Shown piece by piece: positions 5,568 through 60,904 of a stretch of 64,000 nt of DNA. A program made the translations under genes and the position numbers. Every line of letters starts with the position of its first letter. Position 1 is the stretch's first letter. The stretch is from Micromonospora sp. NBC_01740 (GTDB taxonomy: Bacteria; Actinomycetota; Actinomycetes; Mycobacteriales; Micromonosporaceae): the NCBI RefSeq assembly GCF_035920365.1, contig NZ_CP109150.1:372001-436000 (forward strand), given 5' to 3'. The notes beneath the pieces were generated by a model. That model was not told where the DNA came from. It did not search any database and saw only the letters and a list, made by a program, of their open reading frames with translations.

Positions 5568-5732
5568 CGTCAGGTTGAGCTGTTCCAGCAGGTCCGCGGG
5601 GCCGACACAGCCTGCTCACGCACTGCCGAATAGGCGTACGCGAACCGTCACCATTCGGCGCTGCGGATGCATATAGGAAAAGCAACAGAAAGCAATCTCT
5701 GCCACCCACCCAGAATGAGGAGTGTTGCCGCC

Positions 5733-5990
5733 ATGGACTGGCGTCACCATGCTGTCTGCCGCGACGAGGACCCGGAACTGTTCTTCCCGATCGGGACGTC
5801 CGGGCCGGCTCTCCTGCAGGTCGAGCAGGCCAAGGCCGTCTGCCGGCGCTGCTCCGTGACCGACCAGTGCCTGCAGTGGGCGCTGGAGTCCGGTCAGGAC
5901 GCTGGCGTCTGGGGCGGGATGAGCGAGGAGGAGCGGCGGGCTGTCAAGCGCCGCGGTGGCCTCCGGGTGCTGCGCGCTCACTCCGCCTGA
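5733..5990 (+). CDS. whiB1: WhiB-family iron-sulfur regulator, WhiB1/WblE type
   Basis: An 85-residue [4Fe-4S] protein beginning MDWRHHAVCRDEDPELFF, almost the textbook WhiB1/WblE N-terminus. The cluster cysteines are Cys9, Cys37, Cys40 and Cys46, followed by the G-V-W-G-G turn (58-62) and a basic tail EERRAVKRRGG. In mycobacteria WhiB1 is essential, NO-sensitive and binds the primary sigma factor; the same role is inferred here. I chose the ATG at 5733 (GAGGAG about 12 nt upstream) because the conserved protein starts there, although the frame is open from 5667. The long CRP-site-bearing upstream region suggests cAMP control. Confidence 0.95.
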   Translation: MDWRHHAVCRDEDPELFFPIGTSGPALLQVEQAKAVCRRCSVTDQCLQWALESGQDAGVWGGMSEEERRAVKRRGGLRVLRAHSA

Positions 5991-6079: not shown

Positions 6080-6937
6080 TCACGACCCGGCCGTGATCCC
6101 GGCCAACCGGCTCGCCGCGTCCACGCGCCGCAGGACCAGATCGGCCAGCTCCGGCGCGTCGGTCAGCGGGGCGGACACCGCCACCGCACCGGCGCCCCGC
6201 GCCGCCGTGGCGACGGCGTCGTGGAACAGGCCCGGAGCCAGGAAGTACGCCGACACCGCCACCCGCCCGGCGCCCCGCGCCCGCAGCCGCGCCACCGCCG
6301 CCGCGACGGCCGGCGGGGCCGCCGAGGCGTACGACACGCGGGTGGGCACGCCGAGACCGGCGCGCAGCGCGGCAGCCACCCGGCCCACCGACCCGCGCGC
6401 CCGGGCGTCCCTGGTGCCGGCCGCAGCCAGCACCAGCCCGTCGAAGCGCCCCGCCCCCGCCTCACCCAACCGCCGGTGCAGGCCCGCCAGCAGACCGGCG
6501 TCCACCGCCCCGTCGGCCGGGCCGAGCACGTCGGTCACCCGTACCGCGATCGGTGGCCCCGCCTCCCGGGCGGCCGCGACCGCCGCCGGGACGTCCACCC
6601 GCCGGTGGTACGCCGCCGTGAGCAGCAGCGGCACCAGCACGGCCCGGGGGTGCCCGGCGGCGGCCAGGTTCCGCAGCACGGCCGCCGGTCCCGGCTCGGT
6701 GTGGTCCAGCCAGCTCGCCAGCACCGGCGTGCCCGGCCGGGCGGCCGACACGGCCCGGGCCAGCGCCCGGGTCGCCTCGGCGGCCCTCGGGTCCCGGCTG
6801 CCGTGGGCGACCAGGACCACCGGGTCGGCCACCTCCGACAGCCCGACCGGCCGCCACGACCCGGGCGCCCCTGACGGCCCGGGCGCCCCCGACGCGGGAG
6901 AGCCCGGGATCGGCCCGGTCAGACGTGCAGGCCGCAC
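6080..6937 (-). CDS. CbiX/SirB-type sirohydrochlorin chelatase
   Basis: Up to 285 residues with two repeats of the class II chelatase fold. The first repeat has VVLVAHGSRDP (about 40-50), whose His is a metal ligand, and LLTAAYHRRVDVPAAV; the second has SAYFLAPGLFHDAV. It should insert Fe2+ into sirohydrochlorin to give sirohaem, the cofactor of the sulfite reductase at the head of this operon. Cobalt insertion for cobalamin is the alternative. The GTG at 6937 overlaps cysH by 19 nt; a later GTG at residue 36 is also possible, since the first 35 residues are low-complexity Gly/Pro/Ala. Confidence 0.82.
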   Translation of the reverse strand: MRPARLTGPIPGSPASGAPGPSGAPGSWRPVGLSEVADPVVLVAHGSRDPRAAEATRALARAVSAARPGTPVLASWLDHTEPGPAAVLRNLAAAGHPRAVLVPLLLTAAYHRRVDVPAAVAAAREAGPPIAVRVTDVLGPADGAVDAGLLAGLHRRLGEAGAGRFDGLVLAAAGTRDARARGSVGRVAAALRAGLGVPTRVSYASAAPPAVAAAVARLRARGAGRVAVSAYFLAPGLFHDAVATAARGAGAVAVSAPLTDAPELADLVLRRVDAASRLAGITAGS

Positions 6938-7704
6938 TCGGTCTTCTCGAACATCGCCCAGCGGCCGGCCCGGGGGTCCTCCCCCGCCTTCGTGCGGCGG
7001 GTGCAGGGCCAGCAGCCGATCGAGCCGTAGCCCTGCTTGAACAGCTCGTTGACCGGCACGTTCCAGCGGGCGACGTAGGCGTCCACGTCGGCCTGCCGCC
7101 AGGCCGCGATCGGGTTGACCTTGACCTTGCCCCGGCGCGCGTCGAAGGTCACCACCGGCGTGTTCGCCCTGGTCGGCGACTCGTCCCGGCGGAGCCCGGC
7201 GGCCCAGGCGTCGTAGCCGGCGAGCGCCCGCTCCAGCGGCTCCACCTTGCGCAGCTGGCAGCAGTCGTCCGGAGCCTTGTTGAACAGGCGCGGGCCGTAC
7301 TGGCCGTCCTGCTGGCCCACGGTCAGGCGCGGCCGGATCGAGCGCACGTTCACCGGCAGCGTCCGGGCCACCTCGTCGCGGACCCGGAGCGTCTCCGGAA
7401 AGTGCAGTCCGGTGTCGAGGAAGACCACGTCCACCCCCGGGGCGACCCGGGAGACCAGATGGGCCAGCACGGCGTCGGCCATCGAGCTGGTGACGCAGAA
7501 CCGGGCGCCGAAGGTCTCGGCCGCCCAGCGCGCGATCTCCAGCGCCGGCGCGCCCTCCAGGTCCCGGCCGGCCGCCTCGGCCAGCGCGCGCAGCTCGTCG
7601 GGGCCGCGCCGGGCCGCGTCGGCCGGAGCCGGGGCGCCCAGGCCGACCAGGCCCAGGCCCGTCGCCGAGACGAGACCGGGCCGGTCGCCCGTGCCCCCGC
7701 TCAC
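6919..7704 (-). CDS. cysH: Adenylylsulfate (APS) reductase, 4Fe-4S type
   Basis: Reduces activated sulfate to sulfite. The 261-residue protein has a modified PP-loop (CVTSSMADAVL). The two cysteine pairs of [4Fe-4S] APS reductases are clear: DDCCQLRK and GCWPCTRR. The C-terminal catalytic cysteine is in KTECGLHV. The two pairs indicate APS rather than PAPS as substrate. The GTG start (7704) overlaps the stop of the upstream zinc-ribbon gene by 4 nt (GTGA), so translation is probably coupled. The sir, small protein, cysH, cbiX order suggests a complete sulfate-to-sulfide module sharing one mRNA. Confidence 0.93.
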   Translation of the reverse strand: MSGGTGDRPGLVSATGLGLVGLGAPAPADAARRGPDELRALAEAAGRDLEGAPALEIARWAAETFGARFCVTSSMADAVLAHLVSRVAPGVDVVFLDTGLHFPETLRVRDEVARTLPVNVRSIRPRLTVGQQDGQYGPRLFNKAPDDCCQLRKVEPLERALAGYDAWAAGLRRDESPTRANTPVVTFDARRGKVKVNPIAAWRQADVDAYVARWNVPVNELFKQGYGSIGCWPCTRRTKAGEDPRAGRWAMFEKTECGLHV

Positions 7705-7859
7705 CGGGCCACCGCCCGGCCGAGCAGGCCGGTGAACTTCACCGTGAACACCCGGGCGCACGCGTGACACTCCCAGGCGCCGTGGCCGGCCTCACTCGGC
7801 CGCAGGTCCTCCTCGCCGCAGTACGGGCAGTACAGCGGCGCGGAACGGGTCTCGCTCAT
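7701..7859 (-). CDS. Small zinc-ribbon protein of the sir-cysH operon
   Basis: A 52-residue protein starting MSETRSAPLYCPYCGEEDLR. Two CxxC pairs, CPYC (11-14) and CHAC (31-34), should form a rubredoxin-like zinc or iron knuckle. The ending VFTVKFTGLLGRAVAR is basic. Small CxxC proteins lie between sulfite reductase and cysH in other actinomycetes; the function is not established, and a redox or assembly role is a guess. Its ATG overlaps the micro-ORF stop (ATGA) and its stop overlaps the cysH GTG (GTGA), so it sits in a chain of coupled starts. It is easily missed because of its length. Confidence 0.8.
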   Translation of the reverse strand: MSETRSAPLYCPYCGEEDLRPSEAGHGAWECHACARVFTVKFTGLLGRAVAR

Positions 7860-7933
7860 CGCGTCACCTCGCTTCGCTCGGCACCGCGACGAGGCCCCAC
7901 GGCACCCCTGGTTCGCTCGCTTCGATCGCTCAT
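7856..7933 (-). repeat. REP-like element carrying a doubly coupled 25-codon micro-ORF
   Basis: A 78-bp insert between sir and the zinc-ribbon gene, rich in GAGCGAAGCGAG-type sequence. It reads as an ORF from an ATG that overlaps the sir stop by 4 nt (ATGA, 7930-7933) to a TGA that overlaps the next ATG by 4 nt (ATGA, 7856-7859). The peptide starts MSDRSERTR and ends ERSEVTR. A similar arrangement occurs at 59462-59584. Whether the peptide matters, or the frame only keeps ribosomes moving, is unknown. Confidence 0.55.
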
Positions 7934-9645
7934 CGGAGTTCCTCCTCGTCGACCCTGATCACCCAGTTGGCGAACGTCTCGCCCGTCTCCCGGCCGGCCA
8001 GGTAGCGCCGGGCCAGCCGCTCCACGTACGCCGGAAGCTCCTCGGCGGTGGTCTTCAGACCGCGCAGCTTGCGGCCGAACCCGGCCGTCTGTCCCTCGGC
8101 CATGCCGAGCCCGCCGCCGAGGTGGACCTGGAAGCCCTCCACCTGGCGGCCGTCCGGGCCGACGACGAGCTGGCCCTTGAGGCCGATGTCGGCGACCTGC
8201 GTGCGGGCGCAGGCGTTGGGGCAGCCGTTGAGGTGGATGGAGATGTCGGCGTCGAAGTCGCGCAGCCGCTCCTCCAGCCGGGCCACCAGCTCCTCGCCGC
8301 GCGCCTTGGTCTCGACGATGGCCAGCTTGCAGTACTCGATGCCGGTGCAGGCCATCGTGCCGCGCCGCCAGGCCGACGGCTGCGCCTCCAGGCCGATCCC
8401 GCGCAGCTCGCGCACCAGCGAGTCGGTCCGCTCCGGCGCCACGTCCAGCACCAGCAGCTTCTGGTACGGGGTGAGCCGCACCCGCCCGCTGCCGTGCGCC
8501 TCGACCACGTCGGCCAGGCGGGCGAGCTGCCCGCCGGATACCCGGCCCACCACCGGGGCAGCCCCGACGTAGTTGCGCCCGTCGCGCTGCGGGTGCACCC
8601 CGATGTGGTCCACCGGCCTGTCGGGCAGCTGCGGGGCCGGGCCGTCGAGCAACGCCCGACCCAGGTACTCCTTCTCCAGCACCTCGCGGAACTTCTCCAC
8701 GCCCCAGTCGGCGACCAGGAACTTCAGCCGGGCGCGGTTGCGCAACCGGCGGTAGCCGTAGTCGCGGAAGATGCCGACCACGCCCGCCCAGACGTCCGGC
8801 ACCTCCTCCAGCGACACCCAGACGCCGAGCCGCTTGGCCAGCATCGGGTTCGTGGACAGGCCGCCGCCGACCCAGACGTCGAAGCCCGGCCCGTGGTCCG
8901 GGTGGTCCACCCCGAGGAAGGAGATGTCGTTCGCCTCGTACGGGGTGTCGACCAGCCAGGAGATGGAGGTCTTGAACTTGCGCGGCAGGTTGGAGTACGC
9001 CTTGTCGCCCACGTAGCGGCGGACGATCTCGTCGACCGCCGGCGTCGGGTCGAGCAGTTCGTCGCGGGCCACCCCGGCGACCGGGCTGCCCAGCACCACC
9101 CGGGGGCAGTCGCCGCACGCCTCGGTGGTCTGCAGGCCGACGGACTCCAGGCGGCGCCAGATCTCCGGCATGTCCTCGACCCGGATCCAGTGGTACTGGA
9201 TGTTCTGCCGGTCGGTGATGTCGGCGGTGTCCCGGGCGAACTCGCGGGAGATGTCCGCGACCACCCGCAGCTGCGCCAGGCTCAGCTCGCCCCCGTCCAC
9301 CCGGACCCGGAGCATGAAGAACTCGTCCTCCAGCTCGTGCGGCTCCAGCACGGCCGTACGGCCGCCGTCGATGCCCGCCTTGCGCTGGGTGTAGAGGCCC
9401 CACCAGCGGAAGCGGCCACGGAGGTCCTGCGGATCGATCGAGGCGAACCCCTGGTGGGCGTAGATGTTCTCGATCCGGGCCCGTACGTTCAGCGGGTCGT
9501 CGTCCTTCTTGATCCGCTCGTTGGGGTTGAGCGGCTCGCGGTGACCGAGCGCCCACTGACCTTCACCTCGGGGCCGGCGGGGAGTCCGGGCCGGTCGGGG
9601 GGACGTCGGGTCCCCGGCCCGGGCCGGGATGCTGCTGACCGCCAT
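7930..9645 (-). CDS. sir: Sirohaem [4Fe-4S] sulfite reductase (ferredoxin-dependent type)
   Basis: Six-electron reduction of sulfite to sulfide. The 571-residue protein has the two half-domains of the sulfite/nitrite reductase family and the cluster/sirohaem cysteines ACTGIEYCKLA and GCPNACAR (C-x5-C and C-x3-C). The operon partner is APS reductase, which favours sulfite over nitrite; sequence alone does not fully exclude nitrite. The ATG at 9645 follows GGAGGA closely. A 31-codon leader peptide gene lies 133 bp upstream on the same strand, with hairpins between, suggesting attenuation. Confidence 0.92.
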   Translation of the reverse strand: MAVSSIPARAGDPTSPRPARTPRRPRGEGQWALGHREPLNPNERIKKDDDPLNVRARIENIYAHQGFASIDPQDLRGRFRWWGLYTQRKAGIDGGRTAVLEPHELEDEFFMLRVRVDGGELSLAQLRVVADISREFARDTADITDRQNIQYHWIRVEDMPEIWRRLESVGLQTTEACGDCPRVVLGSPVAGVARDELLDPTPAVDEIVRRYVGDKAYSNLPRKFKTSISWLVDTPYEANDISFLGVDHPDHGPGFDVWVGGGLSTNPMLAKRLGVWVSLEEVPDVWAGVVGIFRDYGYRRLRNRARLKFLVADWGVEKFREVLEKEYLGRALLDGPAPQLPDRPVDHIGVHPQRDGRNYVGAAPVVGRVSGGQLARLADVVEAHGSGRVRLTPYQKLLVLDVAPERTDSLVRELRGIGLEAQPSAWRRGTMACTGIEYCKLAIVETKARGEELVARLEERLRDFDADISIHLNGCPNACARTQVADIGLKGQLVVGPDGRQVEGFQVHLGGGLGMAEGQTAGFGRKLRGLKTTAEELPAYVERLARRYLAGRETGETFANWVIRVDEEELR

Positions 9646-9778
9646 GGCGGCGTCCTCCGTTGTCTGCGGTGCCTCGGGAACACGCAAGGCGCGCGGCCGA
9701 CCCGTCGGAACGGGCTGGCGACAACGGTGTCGGAACAGCCGGCGCGCGGCGCGCCCGAGACAGAGTGGTCGGGCGTCG
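9646..9778 (-). promoter_or_regulatory. Candidate attenuator between leader peptide and sir
   Basis: A 133-nt spacer with several foldable segments: CCCGT-CGGA-ACGGG (9701-9714) and a GC-rich GGCGCG-centred palindrome near 9741-9757. There is no T-tract, so Rho-dependent or translational attenuation is as likely as intrinsic termination. The function is inferred from the leader ORF upstream. Confidence 0.35.
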
Positions 9779-57186: not shown

Positions 57187-58125
57187 TCAGCAGTGCCCGT
57201 CGAGCCAGCGGTGGATCAGGAAGAGCGCGATCGACGACGGCGGCGGCAGCACCAGGCGGGCCCCGCCGACCTCCACCGGCCGTCCCGCCAGGGCCGCGCC
57301 GATCTCCCGGCGGGAGAACCACCGGGCGAACGCGATCTCCGTCGGATCCACCTGCACCGGATGCTCCGGATCCGCCGTGGCGAGGAAGCCGAGCATCAGG
57401 GAGCCGGGAAACGGCCACGCCTGACTGCCCGCGTACGCGATGTCGTCGACCGGGACGCCGACCTCCTCGCGGACCTCGCGCAGCACCGCGGCCTCGGCCG
57501 ACTCCCCCGGCTCGACGTAGCCGGCGAGGCAGGAGAACCGGCGCTCGCCGGCGGTGTGCGGCCAGGTGGCGTTGTTGCCGAGCAGGCACCGCCCGTCCAG
57601 GCCCGGAACGCCGTCGTGCACCAGCACGATCATCGCGGGATCGGTACGCGGCCAGATCCGCTCCCCGGCCGGGTCGACCCGGGACCAGCCGGCCTCGTCC
57701 ACCTCCGTCGGGTGCCCGGTGGCCGACGAGTAGCGGTGCCGCAGGTGCCAGTTGACCAGCGCCAGCGCGGTGGTGAACAGCCCGGCGTCGCGGTCGCCGA
57801 GCAGGTGCCCGACCTCGCGCAGGTGCGCCGCCCGGGCCCCGGACACCGCCGGCAGCGGGGCGTCCACGGCGAAGACCGGCACCCCGTCCGGCTCGACGCC
57901 GAGGAACATCGGCGACGTCGGCTCGGGCAGCCCGGCCGGGTCGACCAGCACCAGCTTCGGTGGCGACGTGTCGGTACGCACCAGCGCCCGGCCGCCGTCG
58001 GCGGAGTCGAGCACCAGCACCCGGGCCCGGCTCCACGCCTGCGCCAGCCACCCGGGGTCGGTGCGCCGGTGGGCCGCCCGGTCCAGGGTGGAACGGGCCA
58101 GCGGCGGCGCGGGCTCACCGCTCAC
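57187..58125 (-). CDS. nudC: NADH pyrophosphatase (Nudix, NudC-like) lacking zinc cysteines
   Basis: A 312-residue protein. The Nudix box is GYVEPGESAEAAVLREVREE then VGV; the NADH-specific element S-Q-x-W-P-F-P-x-S appears as GSQAWPFPGSLM. It should hydrolyse NADH to NMNH and AMP, and possibly remove NAD caps from RNA. The zinc-ribbon cysteines expected between the two domains are absent (YSSATGHPT ... VDPAGERIWPRTDPA). The GTG start overlaps the stop of the M16 gene by 4 nt (GTGA), so it is the last gene of that operon. Confidence 0.9.
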   Translation of the reverse strand: MSGEPAPPLARSTLDRAAHRRTDPGWLAQAWSRARVLVLDSADGGRALVRTDTSPPKLVLVDPAGLPEPTSPMFLGVEPDGVPVFAVDAPLPAVSGARAAHLREVGHLLGDRDAGLFTTALALVNWHLRHRYSSATGHPTEVDEAGWSRVDPAGERIWPRTDPAMIVLVHDGVPGLDGRCLLGNNATWPHTAGERRFSCLAGYVEPGESAEAAVLREVREEVGVPVDDIAYAGSQAWPFPGSLMLGFLATADPEHPVQVDPTEIAFARWFSRREIGAALAGRPVEVGGARLVLPPPSSIALFLIHRWLDGHC

Positions 58126-59465
58126 GGTCGTGCCGGCTCGGTGGTGACCGGGGCCAGCGCCGCCACCTGCGGCCCGATCCGTTCGGCGTCGCCCAGCACC
58201 ACGGTGACCGCCTGCGCCGGGGCGAGGTAGCGGGCCGCCGCCTCGGCCACGTCGGCCACGGTCGCCTTCGCCAGCCGGGCGGCGTGCTCGGCCAGGAACT
58301 CCAGGCGCAGCCCGCTGCCGGCGTACGCGCTGGTCAGCGAGGCGAGCCCGGCCTGGGTGGACATCCCGAGCTGGAGGGTGCCGAGGGCGTACTGGCGGGC
58401 CTGCTCCAGCTCGTCCTCGCGGGGCGGGAGGGAGGCCAGCCGGCCGAGTTCGTACGTCGTCTCCAGCAGCGCCGGCCCGGTGACCTCGGTGGCCACGTCG
58501 ACGGCGGCGACCAGCACCGACCCGGCCACCGAGTGCTCGACGAGGGAGTGCCCTCCGTACGTGTAGCCCTTGTCCTCGCGGATGTTCTCCACCCAGCGGG
58601 AGGAGAAGTAGCCGCCGAAGATCAGATTGGCCAGTTGCAGCGCGGCGTGGTCCGGGTGGGTGCGGGGCACCGCCGGCAACGCGATCCGCAGCGAGGACTG
58701 CACCGCCCCCGGGCGGTCGACCAGCAGCAGCGGCCCGGGCTCCAGCGGCGGGGCGGGCGGCAGGTCGGCGGTGTGCCCGGCGCCGGTCCACCCGGACAGT
58801 GCCTTCTCGGCGGCGTCCAGCGCCCGGTCCGGCTGCACGTCACCGACCAGCACCAGCACGGCGTCGGCGGGGTGCACCCGCTGGGCGTGCAGGGCCCGCA
58901 GCGCTCCCGGCCGGACCGCCCGGACCGCCTCCGGTTCGGGGGTCTGCACCGCGTACGGGTGGCTGCCGTAGACCCGCCGGAGCAGGGCGGTGCGGGCCAG
59001 GTGCGCCGGCTGGCTCCGCGCCACGTGGATCCGGTCCACCAGCCGGTCCCGCTCCGTGGCGACGTCGTCGTTCGGGTAGGCCGCGTCGGTCAGCACCTCG
59101 GCGAGGATCTCCAGCATCCGGTCCAGCCCGGTGACCAGCCCGGCGCCGGAGAGCATCAGCCGGTCCGGGTCGATCCCGGCGGAGAGCCCGCCGCCGACCT
59201 TCTGCAACTCGGCCGCGATCTGCACGCTGGACATGGTCCCCGTGCCGGAGAGCAGGGTCTGCGCGAGCACGGCGCCCCGGGCGAGGTGGGCGCGGCCGAA
59301 CGGCATCCACAGCCGCACCTCCACCAGCGGCACCGCCGGCCGGCGTACGGCGATCACGGTCAGCCCGTTGCCCAGCGTGCGCTCGGCCTGCTTCGGCAGC
59401 TTGAGCCTGCGGTTCGGGCCGAGCGGCGGCAGCGCCCGGGGCGCGGCCGGTGCGGTCACGCTCAC
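58122..59465 (-). CDS. M16-family peptidase-like subunit without the zinc motif
   Basis: A 447-residue M16 (pitrilysin/processing peptidase) homologue that lacks H-x-x-E-H. Where the motif should lie it reads WMPFGRAHLARGAVLAQTLL. It still has the M16 C-terminal signature NIREDKGYTYGGHS. It is probably the non-catalytic half that closes around peptides with the active M16 protein encoded just upstream. The GTG at 59465 is preceded by GGAG and overlaps the stop of the repeat micro-ORF by 4 nt. Confidence 0.87.
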   Translation of the reverse strand: MSVTAPAAPRALPPLGPNRRLKLPKQAERTLGNGLTVIAVRRPAVPLVEVRLWMPFGRAHLARGAVLAQTLLSGTGTMSSVQIAAELQKVGGGLSAGIDPDRLMLSGAGLVTGLDRMLEILAEVLTDAAYPNDDVATERDRLVDRIHVARSQPAHLARTALLRRVYGSHPYAVQTPEPEAVRAVRPGALRALHAQRVHPADAVLVLVGDVQPDRALDAAEKALSGWTGAGHTADLPPAPPLEPGPLLLVDRPGAVQSSLRIALPAVPRTHPDHAALQLANLIFGGYFSSRWVENIREDKGYTYGGHSLVEHSVAGSVLVAAVDVATEVTGPALLETTYELGRLASLPPREDELEQARQYALGTLQLGMSTQAGLASLTSAYAGSGLRLEFLAEHAARLAKATVADVAEAAARYLAPAQAVTVVLGDAERIGPQVAALAPVTTEPARP

Positions 59466-59586
59466 TGTGTCTTCTCCGTTCGCGACTGCGGGGCTCGCAA
59501 GACCGGCTCACTCCTCGCGCTCACCGAATCCACCTTCGTTCGCGACTGCGGGGCTCGCAAGACCGGCTCACTCCTCGCGCTCACCG
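59462..59586 (-). repeat. Duplicated 60-bp-period element with doubly coupled 40-codon ORF
   Basis: Two identical 50-bp copies (59477-59526, 59537-59586) at exactly 60-bp spacing between the two M16 genes. On the minus strand they read as one 40-codon ORF from a GTG overlapping the upstream stop (GTGA, 59581-59584) to a TGA overlapping the downstream GTG (59462-59465). The peptide repeats VSARSEPVLRAPQSRT with a 20-residue period. Like the element at 7856-7933, it preserves the ribosome path through the operon. Confidence 0.7.
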
Positions 59587-60891
59587 GGCCCCTCCTGGGA
59601 TGACCTCGATGGACGCGCGGCGCTCGGGCCGCAGGGTGGCCGCGGCGGCGCGGACCTGCTCGTCGGTGACCTCGCCGACGAGCCGGGGCAGGTCGTTGAG
59701 CAGCCCCGGCTCGCCGCGCTGCTGCTCCAGCACGGCCATCTGCAACGCCCGGCCGAGCACCGCGTCGGTGTCGCGCAGCAGGTGGGTCGCCATCCGGGCC
59801 TGGGTGCGGGCCAGTTCCCCCTCGGCCACGCCGTCGGTGGCCAGCCGGTCCAGCTCCTCGTCGATGGTGCGCAGCACCTTGTCCACGTCCCCGCCGGGCG
59901 GCAGGTGCGCCTGGAGCAGCAGCGCCGTCGGGTCCCGCACGTCGAACGGGTCGCCCATGAAGCCGACGTAGCCGCCGAGGCTGGTCACCGCCCGGTCCCG
60001 CTGGACCAGCCGCTCGACCAGCCGGGACGCGTCGCCGTCGGTGAGCACCTCGGCCAGCACGACGTACGGCAGGTAGGCGGCGAAGTCGGTGATCGGGTCG
60101 GGCACCCGCCAGGCGCCTGCCACCGCCGGCAGCGGGGCCAACTCGTCGGTGTACGAGGTGCGCCGCTCCTCGGTCAGGTCGGGCTCGGTGAAGTCGGGCC
60201 GCTTCGGGGCGGGACGCGCCGGCACGTCGCCGAAGTGCCGCTCGATCAGCGTGGTCGCCTCGGCTACGTCGATGTCGCCGCTGACCGCCAGCACCGCGTT
60301 GCCGCTCGCGTAGTAGCGGCGGAAGAAGTCGGCGGCGTCGGGGACGGTGGCCGACTCCAGGTCGACGAAGGATCCGTAGCCGTCGTGCGCGTTCGGGAAG
60401 GTGTCGAACATGACCGGCGGCAGGGTCAGCCAGGGAAAGCCGCCGTACGGGCGGTTGAGGACGTTGACCCGGATCTCCTCCTTGACCACGTCGACCTGGT
60501 TGCGCAGGTTCTCCTCGGTCAGCCGGGGGCCGCGCATCCGGTCGGCCTCCAGGAACAGCGCCCGCTCCAGGGCGTTGCTCGGCAGGGTCTCGAAGTAGTC
60601 GGTGTAGTCCAGGTGGGTGGAGCCGTTGAAGGTGCCGCCCGCCCCCTGCACGTGCCGGAAGTGCGCCAGCTTCTCCAGGTTCTCGGAGCCCTGGAACATG
60701 AGGTGCTCGAAGAGGTGGGCGAAGCCGGTACGCCCCTCGGGTTCGGAGCGGATGCCGACGTCGTAGACGACCGCCACCCCGATCACCGGGGCGCTGCGGT
60801 CGGGGGTCAGGACCACCCGCAGGCCGTTGTCGAGCGTGAACCGCTCTACCGGGTACTTCGTCGCTGGAATTCTCGATCTCCGCGCCGCCAC
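59581..60891 (-). CDS. M16-family zinc peptidase (active subunit)
   Basis: A 436-residue M16 peptidase with the inverted zinc motif H-x-x-E-H in FAHLFEHLMFQGS (about 58-70) and the distal Glu in VDVVKEEIRVN. Typical flanks are LDNGLRVVLTPD and NGSTHLDYTDYFETLP. With the following inactive M16 protein it would form a clam-like protease. The substrate is unknown. The GTG at 60891 has TAGGGT 7 nt upstream (leaderless). First gene of the M16A-element-M16B-nudC operon. Confidence 0.92.
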   Translation of the reverse strand: MAARRSRIPATKYPVERFTLDNGLRVVLTPDRSAPVIGVAVVYDVGIRSEPEGRTGFAHLFEHLMFQGSENLEKLAHFRHVQGAGGTFNGSTHLDYTDYFETLPSNALERALFLEADRMRGPRLTEENLRNQVDVVKEEIRVNVLNRPYGGFPWLTLPPVMFDTFPNAHDGYGSFVDLESATVPDAADFFRRYYASGNAVLAVSGDIDVAEATTLIERHFGDVPARPAPKRPDFTEPDLTEERRTSYTDELAPLPAVAGAWRVPDPITDFAAYLPYVVLAEVLTDGDASRLVERLVQRDRAVTSLGGYVGFMGDPFDVRDPTALLLQAHLPPGGDVDKVLRTIDEELDRLATDGVAEGELARTQARMATHLLRDTDAVLGRALQMAVLEQQRGEPGLLNDLPRLVGEVTDEQVRAAAATLRPERRASIEVIPGGAR

Positions 60892-60898
60892 GGGATCG

Positions 60899-60904
60899 AC
60901 CCTA
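60899..60904 (-). promoter_or_regulatory. -10 box TAGGGT for the leaderless M16 gene
   Basis: TAGGGT on the minus strand ends 7 nt before the GTG at 60891. Confidence 0.5.

What the first reader, a model, noticed from the sequence alone, without database searches (positions are those of the whole stretch)
7856..7933. Operon insert that keeps both stop-start overlaps: a 25-codon micro-ORF between sir and the zinc-ribbon gene
The 78-bp insert reads as an ORF sharing ATGA with the upstream stop and ATGA with the downstream start. Random DNA would rarely give both junctions in frame with no stops. A comparable element sits at 59462-59586, also between coupled genes, and both peptides contain S-x-R-S-E type sequence. 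Together they suggest a family of small repeats selected or shaped so that insertion into operons preserves translational coupling. That is an inference from two examples.
Basis: partly seen in the sequence, partly recalled or inferred. Interest (0 to 1): 0.8.

Follow-up and report, generated by a model that had tools for sequence, protein, structure and literature searches.

The report
Mobile repeat that relays operon translation
This is a copy of a small, apparently mobile DNA repeat that lands on overlapping stop/start codons inside bacterial operons and brings its own tiny in-frame gene, so that ribosomes can probably pass through it to the next gene; the same trick is described from mycobacteria, but here it turns up in other actinomycetes and has an extra hairpin over the next start codon.

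Summary
In detail: 7856-7933 (minus strand) is a 25-codon ORF sharing ATGA with the sir stop and ATGA with the zinc-ribbon start. Alone it is weak evidence; as a family it is strong. It is one of 25 model hits of repeat family A in this 7.3-Mb genome; 59462-59584 is a tandem pair of a second family, B (65 hits). At this junction 69 of 81 loci are empty (4-nt DTGA overlap); 12, the window included, carry full or shortened inserts, all in phase. Of 97 A copies with both ends, 95 have a DTGA-to-DTGA distance of 2 mod 3 and an open ORF. In this genome 19 of 22 A arrays keep an unbroken stop/restart chain. Peptide frame and sequence vary; coupling does not. Family A also has a covarying 3' hairpin predicted to pair the downstream start codon (77 of 84 copies). 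It is found in 84 of 121 Micromonosporaceae genomes and in six other families of the class. Closest known kind: mycobacterial MIRUs. Best explanation: a mobile, start-site-targeting repeat whose micro-ORF hands the ribosome to the next gene. The mover is unknown; translation is inferred, not shown.

The parts
7856..7933 (-). micro-ORF of the family A insert, 25 codons plus stop, from upstream ATGA to downstream ATGA
7930..7933 (-). left DTGA (ATGA): sir stop TGA overlapped by the micro-ORF start
   Evidence: in 69 of 81 loci the zinc-ribbon gene itself overlaps the sir stop here
7856..7859 (-). right DTGA (ATGA): micro-ORF stop overlapped by the zinc-ribbon start
7910..7929 (-). conserved left end of family A (GCGATCGAAGCGAGCGAACC) with the first direct repeat (one mismatch to the second in this copy)
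7868..7879 (-). second direct repeat GAGCGAAGCGAG; deletion between the repeats would explain the 6-9 codon remnants in relatives (inference)
   Evidence: place; remnants L071, L079, L085, L088, L102
7858..7890 (-). 3' hairpin of the insert; its stem holds A and T of the downstream ATG in this copy
   Evidence: for this copy; family covariation; fold statistics
7865..7870 (-). Shine-Dalgarno-like GAGGTG, 5 nt before the downstream ATG, carried by the insert
   Evidence: best-match counts (GAGGTG 21 and GAGGTGA 2 of 97 copies)
7930..9687 (-). sir: sulfite/nitrite reductase (NIR_SIR), gene upstream of the insert
7701..7859 (-). 52-aa gene with two CxxC motifs (zinc-ribbon-like by reading), downstream of the insert
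   Evidence: no Pfam match
6919..7704 (-). PAPS reductase-domain gene, coupled to the zinc-ribbon gene by GTGA
   Evidence: (chain 25, 52, 261)
59462..59584 (-). family B tandem pair: one 40-codon micro-ORF from GTGA to GTGA
59533..59584 (-). family B copy 1 (core)
59474..59524 (-). family B copy 2 (core)
58122..59465 (-). M16 peptidase-domain gene downstream of the B pair (447 codons)
   Evidence: chain 40, 447; domains (58128-59465 tested)
59581..60900 (-). M16 peptidase-domain gene upstream of the B pair (3' part only; start not determined), stopping in GTGA at 59584-59581
   Evidence: domains (59587-60900 tested)

Best explanation
The insert is a copy of a small mobile repeat that inserts at DTGA start sites (mostly overlapping stop/start codons) and carries an ORF that begins in the left DTGA and stops in the right one. 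Ribosomes that finish sir restart in the left ATGA, read 25 codons and restart again in the right ATGA, so coupling of the zinc-ribbon gene survives the insertion. In family A the 3' end of the insert folds into a hairpin that pairs the downstream start codon; a ribosome translating the micro-ORF would open it, making the next gene depend on translation from upstream. Shown by sequence: presence/absence at the DTGA, phase and open frames, covarying stems. Inferred: actual translation, the hairpin's effect, selection for coupling rather than for a peptide, and mobility by an unidentified enzyme.
For: Empty sites: 69 of 81 loci at sir (with L079 and L099 classed) and 18 of 27 scripted loci at the M16 pair have a direct DTGA overlap; filled ones keep a DTGA at both ends. 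The closest relative on the tree, L052 (96% identity), is empty. Phase: 95 of 97 A copies, 50 of 50 clustered A sites, B 45 of 57 phase 2 and 2 of 57 phase 1. Own-genome census: A 18 of 22 arrays coupled plus the window copy, which the script flags 'late' only because its next gene has 52 codons; B 30 coupled and 1 fused of 38. Relatives: A 66 of 69 coupled; B 26 coupled and 8 fused of 37. Other families: 28 of 30 hits with complete chains. Control: one- and two-base deletions leave 6% and 17% of relatives' A copies coupled. The peptide is not what is kept: the B core is read as LRAPQSRTE or ASPAVANE and the A 3' half as ERSEVAR, AAKRGRP or HGAKRVRA. Hairpin: 97.1% of cells paired, 10 pairs with both-side changes against 5.4 in shuffles, 0 of 500 as high; right-end fold z -3.8 and start codon fully paired in 77 of 84, against -0.27 and 17 of 84 at the left end.
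Against: No expression data. Copies share ancestry, so phase could partly be inherited. The relatives' copies were taken from the top of capped, score-ranked lists, which favours intact copies; only the own-genome set is a census. The deletion control is weak for B: after one- or two-base deletions 41-48% (own 33-48%) of B arrays still score coupled and 22-57% fused, so for B the phase counts carry the argument; in A too, 45-73% of deleted copies score 'fused'. Some arrays do not sit on an upstream stop: A 6 'other', 2 with the stop 4 nt inside and 1 without RTGA of 22; B 4 other and 4 without of 38. Some copies are degenerate or broken: A 66887, 3746278, 6906025; B 282409, 1105481, 1895004, 2559118, 3384397 (left copy), 6848666, and 1199349 is 'late'. 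Family B has no covarying right hairpin. Codon-position entropies give no clear coding signature (0.58/0.66/0.86 in the 5' part, 0.62/0.83/0.71 in the 3' part). The window copy as a whole folds no better than its shuffles (z -0.46).
Confidence: 0.8

Rival explanations
1. Inherited by-product: the element was in phase by accident in one ancestor, transposes faithfully to DTGA start sites, and the coupled frames are copied rather than selected.
For: Most A copies have one length (78 of 97 at 80 bp), and a DTGA at both ends follows from where it inserts.
Against: The other A lengths are 74, 77, 71 and 86 bp and the remnants 26 and 17 bp, all 2 mod 3; the two 81-bp copies are first members of tandems that read in frame into the second; B length classes change the frame of the core yet mostly still end at the next DTGA; the A 3' half is read in different frames in different copies.
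Confidence: 0.2
2. The micro-ORF encodes a functional peptide (MSERSER...ERSEV type), and coupling is secondary.
For: Left-end residues SERSER are shared by nearly all of 95 A copies while the third base of the first CGN codon there varies freely.
Against: The middle is poorly conserved, the 3' half and the B core are read in different frames in different copies, remnants of 6 and 9 codons persist and 69 of 81 loci lack any insert at sir, and the left-end bases also form a stem.
Confidence: 0.05
3. The insert is a regulatory DNA or RNA element (internal promoter, terminator, mRNA processing or pausing hairpin) and the ORF is incidental.
For: A conserved 3' hairpin exists in family A; PMC4213456 (passages) ascribes independent regX3 expression to the MIRU-bearing senX3-regX3 intergenic region.
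Against: No promoter-like or terminator-like site was found at 7700-8200 (simple consensus scan only, other promoter types not covered); such roles do not require phase 2; family B lacks the hairpin but keeps the phase.
Confidence: 0.1

Closest known systems
MIRU (mycobacterial interspersed repetitive units; Supply et al. 1997 not held; seen through passages of PMC12548453, and of PMC4213456)
   Same: Short, apparently mobile repeats that insert at start codons so that an ORF in the repeat is coupled to the next gene with a -4 nt spacing (PMC12548453); tandem units, 77 and 53 bp in senX3-regX3 (PMC4213456), both 2 mod 3 like the units here.
   Different: Different organisms: one source says MIRUs are found in many mycobacteria, the other that those between senX3 and regX3 exist only in M. 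leprae and the M. tuberculosis complex. Family A has covarying stems that enclose both start codons, whereas MIRUs are recalled (from no call) as lacking dyad symmetry. No MIRU sequence was available to test homology.
REP/BIME repeats with RAYT transposases; IS200/IS605-type elements and their small derivatives (recalled, from no call)
   Same: Hairpin next to a short recognition tetranucleotide; here internal arms pair with the left and right DTGA.
   Different: Recalled as extragenic and not coding in phase; the only Y1 transposase hit in this genome is a truncated IS605-type gene beside a TnpB-like ORF whose ends, by eye, do not resemble A or B.
Short upstream ORFs that deliver a ribosome to a coupled gene (PMC12548453, passages)
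   Same: It would work like one: a short ORF delivers a ribosome to an overlapping start.
   Different: Here the short ORF is a dispersed repeat present at many unrelated junctions.

Membership tests
MIRU | short repeat unit dispersed in the chromosome | tested here: met
   A about 80 bp, 25 hits at E<=0.0013; B about 60 bp, 65 hits at E<=5.1e-4
MIRU | inserted at a start codon, with an ORF coupled to the next gene at -4 nt | tested here: met
   empty sites in relatives at two junctions
MIRU | tandem arrays of variable copy number | tested here: met
   0, 1, 2 or 3 B copies at the M16 junction in 27 placed loci; 6 copies at one other place
MIRU | sequence homology to mycobacterial MIRU units | not tested
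MIRU | absence of dyad symmetry (recalled, from no call) | tested here: not met
   family A has conserved covarying stems; none found in family B
IS200/IS605-type or RAYT/REP element | cognate Y1 transposase, or an autonomous element with the same ends | tested here: not met
   own genome only: one truncated Y1_Tnp hit beside a TnpB-like ORF with unlike ends; relatives not searched
IS200/IS605-type or RAYT/REP element | hairpin beside a short recognition site that pairs with an internal guide | tested here: inconclusive
   stems pair both DTGA sites with internal arms and covary; no transposition observed
transposon with target-site duplication | target bases duplicated on both sides | tested here: inconclusive
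   excess left/right identity at -2, -1 and D in A and at -2, -1, weakly -3 in B, tandem members not removed; L120 has a GC-type right end at a CG target, and flanks at the M16 junction often differ by eye

The most novel reading that the evidence does not exclude
Family A is a class-wide actinomycete mobile element with a dual code: its internal hairpin arms act in single-stranded DNA as guides that base-pair with NNDTGA and so direct insertion onto start codons, while the same hairpin in mRNA closes the downstream start codon until the element's own micro-ORF is translated. It would be a mobile element whose target recognition and whose host-sparing translational switch are the same structure.
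Probability: 0.2. Interest if true: 0.88.

Novelty: new variant of a known kind. Interest (0 to 1): 0.7.

Why it matters
It extends the MIRU principle, described for mycobacteria in the passages read, to Micromonosporaceae and six other families of the class, with many copies and, at the two junctions compared here, natural pairs of empty and filled sites with which to test how translational coupling constrains operons. The peptide frame varies while the coupling phase does not, which separates selection on coupling from selection on a product. The hairpin over the next start codon gives a direct reporter test of ribosome hand-over. Variable tandem arrays could serve as strain markers, and gene finders may mis-set starts or call small proteins at such sites (inference).

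Tried and rejected
Exact 12-mer search: few hits, and its reversed-pattern control is uninformative because the pattern reads the same backwards. BLAST with the single insert mixes real copies with short GC-rich matches; replaced by models R1 and R2. A plain target-site duplication of NN plus DTGA: statistics favour some duplication or matching, but L120 and the fully paired position -1 of the right end (78 of 78 standard pairs at columns 58-86) do not fit a simple duplication in A, and in B the left D is G in 48 of 49 sites while the right D is A in 14 of 49; left open. A Y1 transposase as mover: one truncated gene, unlike ends. Promoter/terminator scan: nothing found. Anti-Shine-Dalgarno pairing: the right end is only modestly better than its shuffles (mean -10.79 against -9.84; 34 of 50 sites) and the left flank does as well (38 of 50), so SD-like motifs are noted but not used as proof. 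A first sir script failed on a wrong pattern and was redone (it did not place L079 and L099, which I classed). In one search the anchor was not found for L318, L325 and L334; they are outside its counts (by eye: own two copies; L325 at least two and a partial third; L334 empty). A start was set by hand for one array (3955456). Literature: ten searches; among the listed titles and abstract starts none describes such repeats in Micromonospora or other non-mycobacterial actinomycetes, but four lists were capped (20 of 248, 15 of 509, 15 of 22, 12 of 64) and subscription journals are mostly not held.

Full report
What is there. On the minus strand sir ends ...CTCCGATGA and the 52-aa zinc-ribbon gene starts at the next ATGA; the frame between is open for 25 codons, starting in the first ATGA and stopping in the second, with the two ATGs 74 bp apart. 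The neighbours are a NIR_SIR reductase, the small ORF (no Pfam match) and a PAPS reductase, and the chain of overlapping stops and starts runs 25, 52, 261 codons. The second element is a tandem pair in one 40-codon ORF between two M16 peptidase-domain genes.

Two repeat families. A sequence-only model of the first insert (R1, built from 10 copies aligned) finds 25 hits at E<=0.0013 in the 7.317-Mb genome, in 22 arrays; a model of the second (R2) finds 65 hits at E<=5.1e-4 in 38 arrays. In a draw of 121 genomes of the family, own genome included, R1 hits 84 (30 of 44 genera) at E<=1e-4 (several with one weak hit only) and R2 hits 53 (21 of 44 genera) at E<=1e-6. R2 was not tried at class level.

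Empty and filled sites. Eighty named Micromonosporaceae loci and the window were compared at the sir/zinc-ribbon junction. The script placed 79 (69 empty, 10 filled); L079 and L099 are filled by reading. In the 69 empty sites the zinc-ribbon start overlaps the sir stop. Of the 12 filled sites seven carry 74 or 80 bp and five carry 26 or 17 bp; in all twelve the distance is 2 mod 3 and the ORF ends in the zinc-ribbon DTGA (ten; L099; L079 by reading). The short ones look like deletions between the two direct repeats (inference). On a tree of sir the filled sites are scattered, and the closest relative of the window sequence, L052 (96% identity), is empty. Repeated gain and precise loss cannot be told apart here. 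At the M16 junction loci were held for 30 of 61 genomes of the genus draw; of 27 placed by script 18 are empty with a DTGA overlap and 9 carry one to three B copies (59, 118-119 or 177-179 bp), all with unbroken chains.

Phase and frame. In the loci scanned (own genome, relatives, sir loci, including the model's own sequences), 109 A hits remained after removal of duplicates; 12 lacked a DTGA near one expected end and were dropped. Of the other 97, 95 have phase 2 and an open ORF ending in the right DTGA; the other two (81 bp) are first members of tandems that read in frame into the second copy. The right DTGA was chosen by distance to the expected end, not by frame. After clustering by upstream flank 50 sites remain, all in phase 2; the two 81-bp copies were lost in that clustering. 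A binomial test against one third gives 1.4e-24, too small because copies share ancestry. In B, 57 of 64 arrays gave a distance from the last unit to the first following RTGA: phase 2, 0 and 1 in 45, 10 and 2; between units 29, 27 and 1 of 57. Phase 0 means in-frame fusion, phase 2 stop and restart; only phase 1 would break the relay.

Chains. Own genome: A 18 coupled, 2 'late' (one is the window copy, whose next gene has only 52 codons), 2 without DTGA, of 22; B 30 coupled, 1 fused, 1 late, 2 broken, 4 without DTGA, of 38. Relatives, taken from the top of score-ranked lists: A 66 coupled and 3 late of 69; B 26 coupled, 8 fused, 2 late, 1 broken of 37 (a looser run is). Controls: one- or two-base deletions of relatives' A copies leave 6% and 17% coupled (57-59% become 'fused'); same-length shuffles leave 72%. 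For B the control is weak: deletions leave 41-47% of relatives' and 33-48% of own arrays coupled. In other families 28 of 30 hits have complete chains, one of them a fusion without a right DTGA; the 28 measured distances are 77 or 80.

Not the peptide. The same B core is read as LRAPQSRTE in one length class and ASPAVANE in another. The A 3' end is read as ERSEVAR in many Micromonosporaceae copies, as AAKRGRP in L225 and L226 and as HGAKRVRA in family f28. What stays is that the frame reaches the next start.

Structure. In 78 equal-length A copies RNAalifold finds two stems: the left start site with an internal arm, and the right DTGA with an internal TCAY arm around the GAGCGAAGCGAG repeat. 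97.1% of cells are paired; 10 pairs show both-side changes against 5.4 in shuffles; covariation 0.268 against 0.146; 0 of 500 shuffles reach either; slid versions fall to 13-44% paired. Control (a) does not remove relatedness, and the structure was derived from these sequences. A 41-nt window at the right end has mean fold z -3.8 in 84 distinct Micromonosporaceae copies, with the start codon fully paired in 77, against -0.27 and 17 at the left end; in 24 copies of other families -3.68 and 16, against -0.28 and 6. The model used to find copies knew sequence only. The window copy folds only partly this way (A and T of its ATG paired; whole insert z -0.46). Family B shows no covarying right-end stem.

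How it most likely works. With a DTGA at each end the upstream gene keeps its stop and the downstream gene its start; phase 2 and the absence of stops turn the insert into a relay. In family A the ribosome on the micro-ORF would also melt the hairpin over the next start codon. The insertion footprint is short: left and right flanks agree beyond shuffles at -2, -1 and D in A (23, 1 and 4 of 2000 shuffles as high; +7 weakly, 76 of 2000) and at -2, -1 and weakly -3 in B (2, 0 and 72 of 2000). Tandem members were not removed from these tests. Because the right end of A also pairs with an internal arm, target choice by base pairing is an alternative to duplication. No mover was identified: the single Y1 transposase hit in this genome is a truncated IS605-type gene with unlike ends.

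Comparison. The review PMC12548453 (passages) describes MIRUs as apparently mobile repeats, found in many mycobacteria, that insert at start codons so that their ORF is coupled at -4 nt, which is this arrangement; PMC4213456 (passages) gives MIRU units of 77 and 53 bp, both 2 mod 3, and says those between senX3 and regX3 exist only in M. leprae and the M. tuberculosis complex. So this works like a MIRU. Whether it is one by descent was not tested, and family A differs by its stems. Among what the ten paper searches listed, some lists capped, nothing describes such repeats outside mycobacteria; the library lacks most subscription papers.

Noticed in passing
L317 (own genome, around C1:92570-92782): An IS605-type remnant (truncated tnpA beside a 382-codon TnpB-like ORF; names by reading and recall, apart from the PF01797 hit) lies beside a cobT-like gene, 1.2 kb from a family A copy at C1:91260; its right end abuts TGATG by eye.
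   Followed up: partly
own genome C1:64046-64097 and C1:4866166-4866217: Two family B copies in near-identical flanks, suggesting a duplicated gene pair that carried the repeat along.
   Followed up: no
own genome C1:516031-516108 and C1:538009-538095: Two family A copies behind similar upstream sequence, where the upstream gene ends 4 nt further inside the insert.
   Followed up: no
L113, sir coding region: The sir frame of this contig is short and one base appears to be missing by eye: frameshift or assembly error.
   Followed up: no
window 5667-5990: Small ORF with a WhiB-like cysteine pattern near the sulfur cluster (reading; family name recalled, not tested).
   Followed up: no
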